Shown here: positions 2 through 6,467 of the stretch, piece after piece
Layout: each line of letters begins with the position of its first letter
How positions within the stretch are numbered: the stretch's first letter is position 1
DNA from: Thermoproteota archaeon
GTDB lineage: Archaea; Thermoproteota; Thermoprotei_A; Sulfolobales; Ignicoccaceae
Direction: 5' to 3'
Assembly: GCA_013154085.1 (NCBI GenBank)
Contig: JAADDE010000009.1
Span: forward strand, 1 to 49,418
Length of the DNA stretch: 49,418 nucleotides
Notes under the pieces: generated by a model
Told to the model about the DNA's origin: nothing
Seen by the model: the letters and a program-made list of their open reading frames with translations, nothing else
Database searches by the model: none
Made by a program: the position numbers and the translations under genes

Positions 2-532
2 CTACTTCTTCAGCTCCACTATTTCGATTCTGCAGGGGATGGGCATCTTGGAGGCCGCTATCTTTAGGGCCTCCTTAACCTTGTCCGCGTACTGCTTCTT
101 CGTGCGTACCACAAGTATGTCCATGCCCGGGTACACCCTAGCCGCCAGCCCCACGGGCTTGCCGAAGGCGTGCCTCATGCCCTCCTGCAGCCTGTCCGCG
201 CCCGCGAAGGCCATGAACTTGTGCTCCCTCAGCACGTGGTGGGGATACCTCTTAATTATGAATACGTAGTTGCTCTCCCCTATCTCGCTGGAGAGGTTCT
301 TGTGCACCATTACGCGCGCCGCCTCCAGGGCGTTGTGCCTTATCTGCGCCCTCTCGAGCGCCACCAGCCTGAGCTCCACCTCAGCCTCGACGTGGGGATT
401 GCCCATGACCCACTTCACTACCTTCGGCATGGGAGCTCCGTGGATGTACTCCTTCCTCGTGTAGGGAGGCCCGCTGAACGCCTTGGCGTGCCTCTTAGTG
501 AAGCACCTCGCGGGCTTCGCCACATCTGCCAC
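2..532 (-). CDS. rpl10e: Large-subunit ribosomal protein L10e (uL16 family)
   Basis: 176-residue basic protein of the archaeal/eukaryal L10e (uL16) family. It sits near the A site and P site of the 50S subunit. Recognisable are the N-terminal [15 protein letters not shown] block and the [11 protein letters not shown] segment typical of archaeal L10e. It begins with GTG (V codons GTG at 532 and again at 523); a TATA-like TTTATAG lies at about 558-564 on the minus strand, which suits a nearly leaderless transcript. The stop codon is only one base from the window edge, so the gene is complete. It diverges from the ferritin-like gene at 612, sharing a 79-bp intergenic region. No anomalies seen; identification is secure. 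Confidence 0.96.
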
Positions 533-556: not shown

Positions 557-598
557 TATAAAGGGCTTTCACGGCGCGCCCATTTATACCCCGATAGA
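557..598. promoter_or_regulatory. Divergent promoter region between rpl10e and the ferritin-like gene
   Basis: Two TATA-like boxes face away from each other: CTATAAAG at about 557-564 serves rpl10e on the minus strand, and TTTATACC at about 591-598 serves the plus-strand ferritin-like gene. Spacing to the two starts (about 25-30 nt) matches archaeal TBP/TFB promoters. Confidence 0.5.
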
Positions 599-611
599 GA
601 AGGAGAGCCCG

Positions 612-902
612 GTGCCCCCCTTGTTCGCCCGCAACCCCGTGGAGGAGCCCTCCCTCGAGGGCGAGTCTCTGAAGGACGCGGTCAGGCTGGCCATGATAGC
701 TGAGCTGGACGCTATATCGTTCTACATGCAGATAGCCAGGAAGGCGAAGGATGAGAGGGTCAGAAAGGTGTTTGAGGACGTGGCGAGGGAGGAGGCGGAG
801 CACTTCGGGGAGTTTTTGAGGCTCTTGAAGGAGCTCGAGCCCGGCTTCGAGAAGCTGGTGGAGGAGGGAATGAAGGAGGTGGAGGAGCTCCTCAAAGGGT
901 AA
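612..902 (+). CDS. Stand-alone encapsulated-ferritin-like (EncFtn/rubrerythrin-superfamily) protein
   Basis: About 96 residues forming a ferritin-like antiparallel two-helix hairpin. From the GTG at 612, the segment AMIAELDAISFYMQIA (residues 27-42) followed by DVAREEAEHFGEFLRLL (56-72) carries E31, E61 and H64, matching the ferroxidase ligands of encapsulated ferritins (E32, E62, H65 in the Rhodospirillum protein). It closely resembles the ferritin-like domain fused to the N-terminus of the Pyrococcus encapsulin. Proteins of this family form decamers and oxidise Fe(II) at dimer interfaces; iron or peroxide handling is therefore likely. No encapsulin shell gene is adjacent. Start is uncertain: TTG at 621 would be leaderless relative to the TATA box near 594; the frame is open further upstream to 483 but that part overlaps rpl10e and looks non-coding. 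Confidence 0.8.
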   Translation: MPPLFARNPVEEPSLEGESLKDAVRLAMIAELDAISFYMQIARKAKDERVRKVFEDVAREEAEHFGEFLRLLKELEPGFEKLVEEGMKEVEELLKG

Positions 903-934: not shown

Positions 935-1567
935 GTGCACGGAGAAGGGCTTTGGGAGCCGACGTTGTGTTGGGAGGCGTTGAGGGACAAGGCGCTCTCT
1001 AGGCTGGAGAGCGAGGCCGCGCTGGGGCTCGTGGACGAGGAGCTGATGCACTTCCTAAAGCTGCTGAACAAAACTGAGGACGTCTTTACCACCAGCAGCT
1101 GCTCCGGGAGGATAGTGGTGGCGTGCAACGACGTCTCCCCGTGCGACAAGAAGGGAACTAAGATGCTCCTCAAGTCTCATTCAACTATAAGCGTGAACGA
1201 TTTAATAAGGGCCATAGAGAAGGCAGAGTGCAAGCACATATGGGCCAAGTCCTCCCACCCGCTCTTGGACGTGGCCGTCAAGGACCTCCAGAAGGCACTG
1301 GACATAGTGGACCACGCCAAGAGGGCGGGCTTCAAGTACTCCGGCGTCCAGAGGTCGCACTGCTGCTACAGAGTGATAATTAGGAGCAACGACAGCCTCT
1401 ACTTCCCACTCTTCAAAGACGAGGACGCGAAGAGGCTGGCTAGGGTCGTTTCGGAGCTCAACAAGTTCCTTTTAGAAGGGAAGGTCCGGCTGGCGCGGCT
1501 CATGAGCTCGCTGGAGGCCGGCGGGCTCTTGAGCATGGAGGCCGCGCTCGAGGACTTGCTCCTCTGA
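935..1567 (+). CDS. taw3: tRNA wybutosine-synthesis protein TYW3 homologue (Taw3)
   Basis: 210 residues. Matches the TYW3 methyltransferase family, which methylates the N4 position of the tricyclic guanosine-37 intermediate of tRNA-Phe during wyosine-derivative synthesis, using SAM. Seen: the signature TTSSCSGRI near residue 53, HIWAKSSHPLLDVAV near 100 and GVQRSHCCYRVIIRS near 137. Length is normal for the family. GTG start at 935 follows a TTTAAAG element directly upstream, which could be a TATA-like box for a later TTG (953) start; the homologous region is unaffected. Lies 32 nt after the ferritin-like gene on the same strand, probably independent in function. Confidence 0.9.
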   Translation: MHGEGLWEPTLCWEALRDKALSRLESEAALGLVDEELMHFLKLLNKTEDVFTTSSCSGRIVVACNDVSPCDKKGTKMLLKSHSTISVNDLIRAIEKAECKHIWAKSSHPLLDVAVKDLQKALDIVDHAKRAGFKYSGVQRSHCCYRVIIRSNDSLYFPLFKDEDAKRLARVVSELNKFLLEGKVRLARLMSSLEAGGLLSMEAALEDLLL

Positions 1568-1690: not shown

Positions 1691-2689
1691 ATGCCCCCTA
1701 GAAGAATGATCAAGCTAACGGTAAAGAACATACCTCCAATAAAGGAGGCAATGATCGAAGTACCCGGTCCCGGAGTGACGGTTTTGGTCGGACCCAACGC
1801 GTCCGGGAAGACCAAGTTACTCCTCTCTATGCACCTCGCCGACTCTGCTCTAAGGATGTGGAGAGATGAGTACAGGAGGAAGGGCTACGCCCCTAGGAGG
1901 CTCTCCATAGATCCGGGAGAGTACGTTCCCGGGATCTCCTGGCGCGGCTGGTCTGTGGCACTGGAGGAGCACGAGAGGGAAGGCGAGGGGCTCGCTTGGA
2001 GCAAGTATGCTTGGATCCGCTTGGAGCCTGGGAACGGGGGCCTTCGGGTCTCCGCCCGCGTGGGGTACTACAAGAACTTGGTGCCGAAGACATTCATACC
2101 GCCCTTTAGGGCGCTCATAGTACTAATGCCGGTAATGCCCTTGGAGCAGTTCCCGCTCGCTTACAGAGAGTTCCTCTTAAGCTTGCAACAGAGCTCTCCC
2201 TCCGCTAGATCCAAGTGCTTTAATGTTTGGATATCTTACAAGCCCGGCAAGATTACCTTCAAAAGAAACGGAAAGGAGCTCCGCTGGAACGAGGTCGCCT
2301 CTGGCTGGCTCGAGCTGGCCCCACTGGAGCTGGCAATTGCACAAGAAAAGGTACCCAAGCCAACCCGTCTAATAGCAGTCGAAGAGCCCGAAGCACACCT
2401 CCATCCCAAGGCAGTGCGGTGCGTCATCAGAGAGATCGTAGATCTCGTGCGCCAGGGGTATGCGTTCTTGATCACTACGCACGATCCGCTCATAATAGAG
2501 GAGCTGGACGTCCAGCTGCTAGAGGGAAGGCTCAGTGCTGAAGAACTAAGGGTGTATCTACTCGATAAGGGTACGGCCGAGAGCGTGGAAGTAAACGAAG
2601 AAATAGGCATAGAAGAGGATCCAATAATAGAAGCGCTCGACGACGTGCAGGCAGAGAAGGCCGCCCTCTTGCTCGGTGGGAAGCCTTGA
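1691..2689 (+). CDS. AAA-type (OLD/RecF-like) P-loop ATPase
   Basis: 332 residues. An ABC/SMC-like ATPase of the AAA_15/AAA_21 kind: the N-terminal strand MIKLTVKNIPPIKEA, Walker A GPNASGKT at about residues 35-42, and a C-terminal Walker B block RLIAVEEPEAHLHP (about 227-240) followed by the switch TTHDP. There is no long coiled coil, so it is a compact single-domain ATPase rather than an SMC protein. Such ATPases are often paired with a downstream nuclease or TOPRIM/DUF partner in defence or repair modules; here the next ORF starts at TTG 2686 inside the stop codon (TTGA overlap), which implies translational coupling. A second in-frame ATG at 1706 is an equally good start. The TATA-like TTCAAAATAC at 1647-1656 lies about 40 nt upstream. 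Confidence 0.78.
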   Translation: MPPRRMIKLTVKNIPPIKEAMIEVPGPGVTVLVGPNASGKTKLLLSMHLADSALRMWRDEYRRKGYAPRRLSIDPGEYVPGISWRGWSVALEEHEREGEGLAWSKYAWIRLEPGNGGLRVSARVGYYKNLVPKTFIPPFRALIVLMPVMPLEQFPLAYREFLLSLQQSSPSARSKCFNVWISYKPGKITFKRNGKELRWNEVASGWLELAPLELAIAQEKVPKPTRLIAVEEPEAHLHPKAVRCVIREIVDLVRQGYAFLITTHDPLIIEELDVQLLEGRLSAEELRVYLLDKGTAESVEVNEEIGIEEDPIIEALDDVQAEKAALLLGGKP

Positions 2690-4448: not shown

Positions 4449-6467
4449 TTGTGCTACTCCATCGCCGTTGTCGGACAGCCTAACGTGGGCAAGTCTACCT
4501 TCATCAACGTGCTGATAGGGAAGTACGTGAGCCACGTGGCCAACTGGCCCGGGGTAACTGTCGACATCAAAGTGATCAGAGTGGAGTACGACGGGGAGGA
4601 GCTGTGCCTCTACGACTTCCCCGGGATGTACTCGCTCAGCCCCTCCTCCGAGGAGGAGAAGATCGCCGTGGAGAAGTTCGTCAGCACAGAGTTTGACAAC
4701 CACATTCTAATTGCAGACATGACGTCGCTCAAGAGGACCCTCTACCTGGTGGTCCAAGCGCTGGAGCTGAAGGGCAAGGGAGTGGTCGCCCTGGGCAAGG
4801 CCGACGCCGCGGAAGAGGTGGGAATACACGTGAACACGTCCCTACTCTCCAAGAGGCTCGGCTTCCCGGTGATCCCCTTCAGCTCCTACGGCCTCAAGGG
4901 AGTTGAGGAGGTGCTTGAGGAGGCCCTCAAGCCTCAGAAGCCCAAGGAGCTCTACATAAACTACGGCGATCTGGAGTACTACGTGAGCAGGATAGCGGAC
5001 TTGCTGAGGGGCAAGGTCAAGGGAGGGCCCCGCTGGTACGCCGCAGAGGCCTTGGCCGGAAATCCCGTGGTCAAGGAAGTCTTGGAAAAGCTGGGCCTCT
5101 GGGGCGAGGTATCTTCGGTAATCGAGGAGGCCAAGCGGGAGCTCGGAGAGGACGACTTGGCCAAGATAATAATCTCGGAGAGGTGGAAGTTCATCGAGAG
5201 CTTGGTGGAGGGAGCGATAAGCGTTGAGAGGGTCGTCAAAGAGGCTTGGTGGACCAAGGCGCTGGACGGAGCTCTGCTGAACCCCGTGCTCGGCCCCTTC
5301 GCGGCCTTCGCCGTGCTCTTCTCCGTGCTCTTCGTAGCGTTCTCGCTGAACACGGGCTTCCCCGCAAACGTGCTCTTCGACCTCGCGGGCCTCCACGGGC
5401 TGGCCAGAGCGGCGGAGCACTACAACACCTCGGAAATGCTCGGCTCCTTCTTCGCGCACTTGGCCCTCCTAGCAAAGGAGTCCATCCCGGGCTTCTGGGG
5501 CGAGCTCTTGGGGGAGGGCATAATAGCCGGCGTCGGCGCGGTGCTCTCCTTCTTCCCCCTCATCTTCACCATATACTTCCTGTTGGCGCTGCTGGAGGAC
5601 TCCGGGGTGGCGCCCAGGATAGCGGTGGCTGTGGACCCGGTCTTCAAGCCCGTGGGGCTCACCGGCAAGGCGATATTCCCGCTCCTCATAAGCGTCGGGT
5701 GCAACGTGCCCGGCGTGCTGGCCTCCAGAGTTATGGAAAGCCCCGGCCTGAGGAAGGCAGTGGCAATGAACGTCATGTACGTGCCGTGCCAAGCGAGGCT
5801 CGTGGTGTTCTTGGCGCTCGCGACCCTCCTGCCCGCTTGGGCGAGGGCCCCTTCCGTGGCGGCCGTCTACCTCTACTCTATTTCCGTATTCATAATAATG
5901 ACGTACATAACGTCCAGACTGTTGTTTAAAGTAAAGGAGAGGCCGGAGCTCATCATAGAGCTCCCGCCCTACCACGTACCGAAGCTGAAGATCGTACTGT
6001 GGATGACGTGGGACCAGGCCGAGCACTTCCTAGAGAAGGCCGGGACGCTGATACTGGCCTTCAGCGTGGTCCTCTGGCTGGCCATGAAGTTCGGCGCGGC
6101 CGACGCGGTGGGAAGCGCCTTGGCGCCGGTGAGCTCATGGGCCTTAGGGGTGGGGGAGGAGCCCGCTAAAATAGTAAACATAGCCATGCTTGCCGGCACA
6201 GTAGCCAAGGAGATTGTGCTGGACGTGCTGGCCATAAGCGCCGGGACCAGCAACATAAGGGAAGCGGCCGCGATCTTGGGCTTGGAGCCAGTCCAAGCGC
6301 TGGCCTTAATGTTCGCGCTCGCCGTGTACGTGCCGTGCGTGGCCACCGTGGCTACGATGAGGCAGGAGCTGGGAAGCTGGAAGTACGTTGTGCTTTCAGT
6401 TTTAATATCGATGCTCCTCTCCGTGCTGAGCGCTAAGGCCGTGACGGTACTACTGGGATCTCCTTGA
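4449..6467 (+). CDS. feoB: Ferrous iron transport protein B
   Basis: 672 residues. FeoB imports Fe(II) across the cytoplasmic membrane under GTPase control. The N-terminal G domain shows G1 GQPNVGKST (residues 9-17), a switch region NWPGVTVDIK and G3 DFPGMYSL; the usual G4 NKxD is represented by GKAD, a mild departure. About eight to ten membrane spans follow in two repeated gate halves containing VGCNVPGVLASR and YVPCVATVATMRQELG, each with the conserved cysteine. The start TTG at 4449 follows a GGTAGGAG stretch; no other in-frame start precedes the G1 motif. No feoA is seen beside it; the small ORF at 6529 is the only candidate accessory. The operator just upstream suggests iron-responsive repression. 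Confidence 0.95.
   Translation: MCYSIAVVGQPNVGKSTFINVLIGKYVSHVANWPGVTVDIKVIRVEYDGEELCLYDFPGMYSLSPSSEEEKIAVEKFVSTEFDNHILIADMTSLKRTLYLVVQALELKGKGVVALGKADAAEEVGIHVNTSLLSKRLGFPVIPFSSYGLKGVEEVLEEALKPQKPKELYINYGDLEYYVSRIADLLRGKVKGGPRWYAAEALAGNPVVKEVLEKLGLWGEVSSVIEEAKRELGEDDLAKIIISERWKFIESLVEGAISVERVVKEAWWTKALDGALLNPVLGPFAAFAVLFSVLFVAFSLNTGFPANVLFDLAGLHGLARAAEHYNTSEMLGSFFAHLALLAKESIPGFWGELLGEGIIAGVGAVLSFFPLIFTIYFLLALLEDSGVAPRIAVAVDPVFKPVGLTGKAIFPLLISVGCNVPGVLASRVMESPGLRKAVAMNVMYVPCQARLVVFLALATLLPAWARAPSVAAVYLYSISVFIIMTYITSRLLFKVKERPELIIELPPYHVPKLKIVLWMTWDQAEHFLEKAGTLILAFSVVLWLAMKFGAADAVGSALAPVSSWALGVGEEPAKIVNIAMLAGTVAKEIVLDVLAISAGTSNIREAAAILGLEPVQALALMFALAVYVPCVATVATMRQELGSWKYVVLSVLISMLLSVLSAKAVTVLLGSP

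What the first reader, a model, noticed from the sequence alone, without database searches (positions are those of the whole stretch)
612..902. Free-standing encapsulated-ferritin-type protein with no shell gene alongside
Seen: ligand pattern E31, E61, H64 and the AIIAELDAI-like helix match the encapsulin-fused ferritin domain of Pyrococcus and bacterial EncFtn. Known: in these systems the domain is cargo or is fused to the encapsulin shell. Here the next genes are rpl10e and taw3. Either the shell is elsewhere, or this organism uses an unencapsulated EncFtn.
Basis: partly seen in the sequence, partly recalled or inferred. Interest (0 to 1): 0.6.

Follow-up and report, generated by a model that had tools for sequence, protein, structure and literature searches.

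The report
Encapsulin ferritin that lost its shell
A small iron-oxidising protein, normally locked inside a virus-like protein shell, is here made by an Ignicoccus-like heat-loving archaeon with no detectable shell gene; comparison with relatives shows that the shell has been lost repeatedly while the iron-oxidising part was kept, so that part must do something useful on its own.

Summary
Window 612-902 (+) encodes a 96-aa encapsulated-ferritin-type protein (EncFtn) with ligands E31, E61 and H64. Its nearest solved relative is the P. furiosus EncFtn domain (E 7e-18). It lies between rpl10e and taw3.

No Family-1 encapsulin was found in its genome (82% complete), in four congeners (two complete) or in 17 other free-standing genomes of the order, using Pfam Linocin_M18 and an order-specific shell profile. 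None of the five congeneric genomes has a ferritin (PF00210).

In the order, 21 genomes carry free-standing EncFtn and most other EncFtn genomes carry EncFtn-shell fusions. The tree needs at least 7 switches and rejects one free clade (AU p=0.019). Two loci show fusion to free: one lost the shell in place within a genus, another keeps a decayed shell fossil behind a new TAG stop. Ligands are invariant in 60/60 free sequences; dN/dS is about 0.03 in three pairs.

The I. hospitalis homologue, Iho_0095, is among that cell's most abundant proteins, listed as unknown function.

Best reading: a shell-free, probably decameric ferroxidase for Fe(II)/peroxide detoxification. Decamers, activity and location are inferred. 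Short bacterial EncFtns were known; recurrent archaeal shell loss was not described in papers I could search.

The parts
612..902 (+). Free-standing EncFtn-type ferritin-like protein, 96 aa (GTG 612; alternative TTG 621); ferroxidase ligands E31, E61, H64; Y38 and D33 conserved; ends at helix 4 with no targeting peptide
935..1567 (+). taw3/TYW3 tRNA-wybutosine methyltransferase; EncFtn-taw3 pair also in congener G003, where the two frames overlap by 14 nt
2..532 (-). Ribosomal protein L10e (uL16), divergently transcribed upstream neighbour
580..591 (+). AT-rich CATTTATACCCC, possible TATA box about 25 nt before GTG 612 (read by eye, inference)
4449..6467 (+). FeoB ferrous iron transporter, 3.5 kb downstream; link to EncFtn not shown

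Best explanation
This is an EncFtn ferroxidase that works without an encapsulin shell. It descends from the archaeal EncFtn-encapsulin fusion proteins; in this and several other lineages the shell half was lost, by nonsense mutation or deletion, and the ferritin domain was kept under selection. Most likely it assembles as an open, ring-shaped homodecamer in the cytoplasm, with a di-iron site (E31/E61/H64 from two subunits) at each dimer interface. It oxidises Fe(II) with traces of H2O2 or O2, which removes peroxide and Fenton-active iron and buffers a few tens of Fe per ring. It cannot store mineral by itself. SHOWN: identity, ligands, predicted monomer fold, no detectable shell in the genomes searched, recurrent free state, direction of change in two related loci, purifying selection in free lineages, high abundance of the I. 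hospitalis homologue (published). INFERRED: descent of the window's own gene from a fusion, decamer, ferroxidase/peroxide role, cytoplasmic location, fate of the Fe(III).
For: Family and fold. Ligands E31/E61/H64/Y38 in 60/60 free and 64/64 fused sequences. No shell: PF04454 and the 37-shell profile A1 find nothing in 21 free-standing genomes, while A1 finds a divergent shell in G024 at 1e-45; no PF05065 capsid in 15. At phylum level 54 genomes have unfused and 44 fused EncFtn; only 2 of the 54 have any PF04454. Direction: in genus g9, G042 is free while G012/G032 are fused in the same gene order, with the rubrerythrin-like gene directly after EncFtn in G042 and G032; G115 keeps 23 codons of shell after a new TAG, in-frame score 46 vs next best 17 of 10,134 windows. 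Tree: 7 switches, single free clade rejected p=0.019. dN/dS 0.029-0.034 in three free pairs, 0.10 in a fourth. Iho_0095 is high in the proteome; G002 has the I. hospitalis genome size. Free EncFtns sit beside peroxiredoxin, flavodiiron-type or rubrerythrin-like genes in several loci.
Against: No biochemical data. R. rubrum EncFtn alone oxidises iron but lets Fe(III) precipitate, and the domain is thought to need a shell for storage (PMC5012862; PMC8346489). The own genome is only 82% complete. Ignicoccus is an anaerobe (own knowledge), so the natural oxidant is uncertain. The window's neighbours (ribosomal and tRNA-modification genes) carry no oxidative-stress signal.
Confidence: 0.75

Rival explanations
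1. The shell exists but was missed: it lies in the unassembled 18% of this genome, or is too diverged for the profiles, and the protein is loaded into it.
For: Own genome 82% complete in 57 contigs. One other genome, G301, has a free EncFtn plus two separate shell genes. The review says short EncFtns could in theory be encapsulated.
Against: Two complete congeners, a 92% complete congener with the same EncFtn type, and complete genomes of the nearest EncFtn clade (f7 g7) also lack a shell. The protein stops at helix 4, with no targeting peptide or linker.
Confidence: 0.1
2. It has been repurposed mainly as a rubrerythrin-like peroxidase or another di-iron enzyme; iron is only a cofactor and not a substrate.
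For: Pfam Rubrerythrin is the top Pfam hit. EncFtn loci in the order often lie beside rubrerythrin-like, peroxiredoxin or flavodiiron-type genes. The published note on Iho_0095 assumes a rubrerythrin-like peroxide defence.
Against: Single ExxH per chain, 96 aa, no rubredoxin domain, and a fold match to EncFtn and not rubrerythrin; the full EncFtn ligand set is invariant. A peroxide-consuming ferroxidase would fit the same gene context.
Confidence: 0.13
3. A relic: the ferritin half is a decaying leftover of a lost encapsulin system with no remaining function.
For: Shell decay is visible in at least one relative.
Against: dN/dS about 0.03 in three free lineages, invariant ligands in 60/60, persistence in whole genera, and high abundance of Iho_0095.
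Confidence: 0.02

Closest known systems
P. furiosus EncFtn-encapsulin fusion (PFC_05175; PDB 5n5e, 2e0z) and crenarchaeal Flp-fusion encapsulins
   Same: Same domain (E 7e-18, about 45% identity, TM 0.81), same ligands and helix 4
   Different: Here there is no linker and no shell half, and no shell gene was found in the genome
Short EncFtn 's-FLP' N. europaea NE0167 (PDB 3k6c)
   Same: Free-standing, about 95 aa, no targeting peptide; fold match TM about 0.7
   Different: Bacterial, only about 23% identical; whether it is encapsulated is described as unclear. Here the absence of a shell is checked genome-wide and origin from a fusion is shown for two relatives
I. hospitalis Iho_0095
   Same: Free-standing EncFtn of the same genus-level group, ligands conserved
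   Different: Only about 45% identical, at another locus (near the thermosome gene), and in another EncFtn clade, so a separate origin within the genus
Bacterial EncFtn cargo with C-terminal targeting peptide (R. rubrum Rru_A0973, H. ochraceum, M. xanthus EncB/EncC)
   Same: EncFtn fold and ligand pattern; the R. rubrum protein is characterised as a decameric ferroxidase
   Different: They carry a targeting peptide and an encapsulin partner; neither is present here

Membership tests
EncFtn (encapsulated-ferritin-like protein, PF22277) | Sequence membership in the family | tested here: met
   PF22277 29.2 bits, cut-off 27; 5n5e 7e-18. NCBIfam EncB_fam and TIGR04535 hits are below their cut-offs
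EncFtn (encapsulated-ferritin-like protein, PF22277) | Ligands E..(30)..E-x-x-H plus conserved Tyr | tested here: met
   E31, Y38, E61, H64; invariant in 124 distinct sequences
EncFtn (encapsulated-ferritin-like protein, PF22277) | Two long antiparallel helices plus short helix 4 per monomer | tested here: met
   Helices 17-44, 48-75, 77-95, pLDDT 91; TM 0.81 to 5n5e
EncFtn (encapsulated-ferritin-like protein, PF22277) | D5 decamer formed with iron; ferroxidase activity | not testable with these tools
   Needs native MS/SEC and an iron oxidation assay
Family-1 encapsulin iron system | HK97-fold shell encoded in the genome | tested here: not met
   PF04454 and A1 profile negative in G000-G004 and in all other free-standing genomes tested; G000 is 82% complete
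Family-1 encapsulin iron system | Cargo loading by C-terminal targeting peptide or by fusion | tested here: not met
   Protein ends ...MKEVEELLKG at helix 4; not fused
Short EncFtn (s-FLP) | About 95-100 aa EncFtn without targeting peptide | tested here: met
   96 aa, no extension; definition from PMC11202242
Rubrerythrin | Full-length four-helix di-iron chain with two ExxH motifs, usually plus a rubredoxin domain | tested here: not met
   One ExxH; matches PF02915 only over profile 3-70 of 137; no rubredoxin; fold match is EncFtn
Classical ferritin/Dps (PF00210) | Four-helix cage-forming subunit | tested here: not met
   14.4 bits, cut-off 24.5; no PF00210 in any of five congeneric genomes

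The most novel reading that the evidence does not exclude
Archaeal EncFtn-encapsulin fusions have repeatedly been dismantled: the shell is lost and the ferritin ring becomes a free cytosolic ferroxidase/peroxide scavenger. In the Ignicoccus-type genus it serves cells with neither encapsulin nor ferritin, so they detoxify iron without a storage cage. About half of the EncFtn-bearing Thermoproteota genomes sampled are of this shell-less kind.
Probability: 0.65. Interest if true: 0.65.

Novelty: new variant of a known kind. Interest (0 to 1): 0.57.

Why it matters
EncFtn is described as an 'inside-out' ferritin that needs the encapsulin lumen to store iron. If it is kept under strong selection, and abundantly made in I. 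hospitalis, with no shell in the genome, then storage cannot be its only job; its ferroxidase activity is useful by itself. That makes the open question of what short EncFtns do directly testable in a cultured organism with an abundant protein of 'unknown function' (Iho_0095). It also gives natural before/after pairs (same genus, same locus, shell present or lost) for asking what the shell is for, and a case of a virus-derived compartment being lost repeatedly.

Tried and rejected
Shell in the own genome: PF04454, A1 profile, PF05065 negative; PF19307 also negative, but its control rang nowhere, so that test says little. Family-4 encapsulin (DUF1884) was not searched. Fragmented assembly as the cause: rejected by complete congeners. 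Classical rubrerythrin: rejected on length, motif count and fold. Shell remnants behind other free EncFtns: only the already disrupted fusion L012/G116 scored at 1e-3; L046 came up with its sister's shell as the query and was then tested in register. Sigma-70 promoter scan: nothing, and not meaningful for archaea. PF02579 as a marker for the IssA thioferrate store: present in all 12 genomes but the family is too broad. Residues that differ between free and fused (position 63 E in 37% vs 0%; position 39): seen, but not corrected for phylogeny. Literature for Iho_0095 beyond one paper: none held.

Full report
OBSERVATION. TTG 621 is an alternative start, as it aligns with the ATG of the nearest homologue (MFARNPV in both). 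Pfam gives Rubrerythrin (1.5e-10) and EncFtn-like PF22277 (8e-7), both over the curated cut-offs. The nearest solved structure is the P. furiosus EncFtn domain 5n5e (7e-18). A model built on 78 aligned sequences has pLDDT 91 with helices 17-44, 48-75 and 77-95, and its best fold match is 5n5e (TM 0.81), followed by EncC, EncB, NE0167 and the H. ochraceum and R. rubrum EncFtns. The neighbours are rpl10e on the other strand and taw3 33 nt downstream. The EncFtn-taw3 pair recurs in congener G003, where the two frames overlap.

NO SHELL. The window's genome G000 (1.18 Mb, 82% complete) has no Linocin_M18 (PF04454) match. Nor do its four congeners, of which G001 and G002 are single-contig genomes. 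I built a shell profile from 37 fused shells of the same order (A1). It finds the shell in G084 (itself a member of the profile) at 1e-99 and in the divergent G024 at 1e-45, but gives nothing below 0.04 in any of the 21 order genomes with a free-standing EncFtn. PF05065 capsids are absent from the 15 free-standing or congeneric genomes tested. None of the five genomes of the genus has a ferritin (PF00210). What they do have, besides EncFtn, are other rubrerythrin-domain proteins (G004, 56% complete, has none); in G000 this is a 347-aa ferritin-like plus VIT1 membrane protein, similar in layout to MbfA iron exporters although the NCBIfam MbfA model did not match it at 1e-5.

FREE VERSUS FUSED. 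In 117 genomes of the order 75 have an EncFtn match. In 21 it is free-standing, with no PF04454 in the genome; most of the rest are 320-440-aa fusions. Free forms occur in six of the order's families: all four EncFtn-bearing members of the window's genus, and some genera or species of families f2, f3, f6, f7 and f9. On an EncFtn-domain tree (88 columns, so many forks unresolved) at least 7 free/fused switches are needed, and forcing all free sequences into one clade is rejected (AU p=0.019). The window protein and G003 group with family f7, free and fused (99/88), whereas the I. hospitalis/G001 type groups with f9 free forms (95/86); so the genus holds two different free EncFtns, which suggests transfer or separate losses. 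In a wider sample of 250 genomes of the phylum (at least 90% complete asked for; the window's own genome is included at 82%), 44 genomes have fused EncFtn and 54 have unfused EncFtn (three of these frames contain stops). Only two of the 54 have any PF04454 match: G264, a broken fusion, and G301, with two separate shell genes (counted by hand from the tables). Of the 80 best named loci in GTDB genomes, 46 are unfused, including Thermoplasmata, Archaeoglobi, DPANN, Jord-/Njordarchaeota and three bacteria; a few lie near contig ends.

DIRECTION OF CHANGE. Two loci show fusion turning into free. (i) In genus g9, G012 and G032 have the fusion and G042 a free 105-aa EncFtn at the same place: the two upstream genes (56-64% identity) and the flavodiiron-type and peroxiredoxin genes downstream (57-89%) keep their order. 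In G032 and G042 the same rubrerythrin-like gene (70% identity) follows immediately, so in G042 the shell was cut out in place. (ii) In G115 (sister to the fused G079, 95/89) the frame ends at TAG where G079 has TGG (Trp), just after the linker. The next 23 codons still read FVGLITS*VRKVIEIR*ALLKRL against FVGVIASEIKKVVDNTRNLVKKL of the intact shell: score 46 against 17 for the next best of 10,134 windows. The rest of the shell is gone. For the window's own lineage the direction is inferred from the tree, not seen directly.

FUNCTION KEPT. E31, E61, H64 and Y38 are invariant in 60 distinct free and 64 distinct fused sequences. dN/dS is 0.029-0.034 in three free pairs and 0.10 in a fourth; for the window/G003 pair synonymous sites are saturated. 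Expression: G002 has the chromosome length of I. hospitalis, 1,297,538 bp (against PMC2614490). Its EncFtn is a 108-aa gene near a thermosome gene, which fits Iho_0095, 108 aa and adjacent to thermosome subunit Iho0096. Iho_0095 is in the published list of the most abundant I. hospitalis proteins (relative spectral count 1050 in pure culture, 656 in co-culture), annotated 'protein with unknown function', ferritin-like domain (PMC3149612). That identification rests on genome size, protein length and neighbour, not on the record itself.

MECHANISM. R. rubrum EncFtn is an iron-induced decamer that oxidises Fe(II), binds up to 48 Fe per decamer and has no cavity; alone it gives insoluble Fe(III) (PMC5012862). 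With the same fold and ligands, the simplest reading is a free decameric ferroxidase. In relatives, free EncFtns lie beside peroxiredoxin (G030, G040), a flavodiiron-type protein (G091), or rubrerythrin-like genes (G022, G042, G064), so a role in peroxide/iron detoxification is more likely than storage. The window's own neighbours do not add to this, apart from FeoB 3.5 kb away, which may be coincidence. Oligomer, activity, oxidant and fate of Fe(III) are inferences.

KNOWN AND NEW. Fusion Flp systems are described as archaeal, mostly crenarchaeal (PMC8346489). Short EncFtns without targeting peptide are described as predominantly bacterial, first classed as non-encapsulated, with encapsulation called unclear (PMC11202242). 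I found no paper on shell loss or on shell-less EncFtn in Ignicoccus, but most subscription papers are not held. The protein is therefore a member of the EncFtn/s-FLP kind; what is new is its archaeal, probably fusion-derived, genome-wide shell-less form and its recurrence.

Noticed in passing
L040 3296-3772, L042 2465-2941, L052 3276-3770, L070 4025-4516, L013 2560-3027 and others: A rubrerythrin-like protein of about 158 aa lies beside EncFtn in fused and free loci and ends in a nearly invariant tail WKDSPWHG(S/T)PGG. The tail persists where no shell exists, so it is not simply a cargo-loading peptide; its function is unknown.
   Followed up: partly
L046 2197-2268: Fossil of an encapsulin shell N-terminus behind a new TAG stop in Thermoprotei archaeon B45_G16 (G115); the EncFtn upstream is intact.
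   Followed up: yes
L002 790-1833 (G000:C47): 347-aa protein with ferritin-like and VIT1 domains, MbfA-like in layout; possibly the iron exporter partner in a genus without ferritin.
   Followed up: partly
G301 (C1): A genome of the phylum with a free EncFtn and two separate encapsulin shell genes of 311 and 342 aa; could be a split system or viral.
   Followed up: no
G054:C1:518014-518232: A 92-aa C-terminal piece of an encapsulin shell with no EncFtn found in the genome: loss may also run the other way.
   Followed up: no
L170 2398-5244 (MW679026.1): Eggerthella phage LE2-3 encodes a large protein (about 948 aa) with an EncFtn-like stretch in it (42% identity, 4e-5).
   Followed up: no
window 1691-2689: AAA_21/AAA_15 type ATPase (OLD/defence-like family) directly downstream of taw3.
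   Followed up: no
EncFtn position 63 (residue before the ligand H64): Glu in 37% of free but 0 of 64 fused sequences (the window has E63); not corrected for phylogeny.
   Followed up: partly
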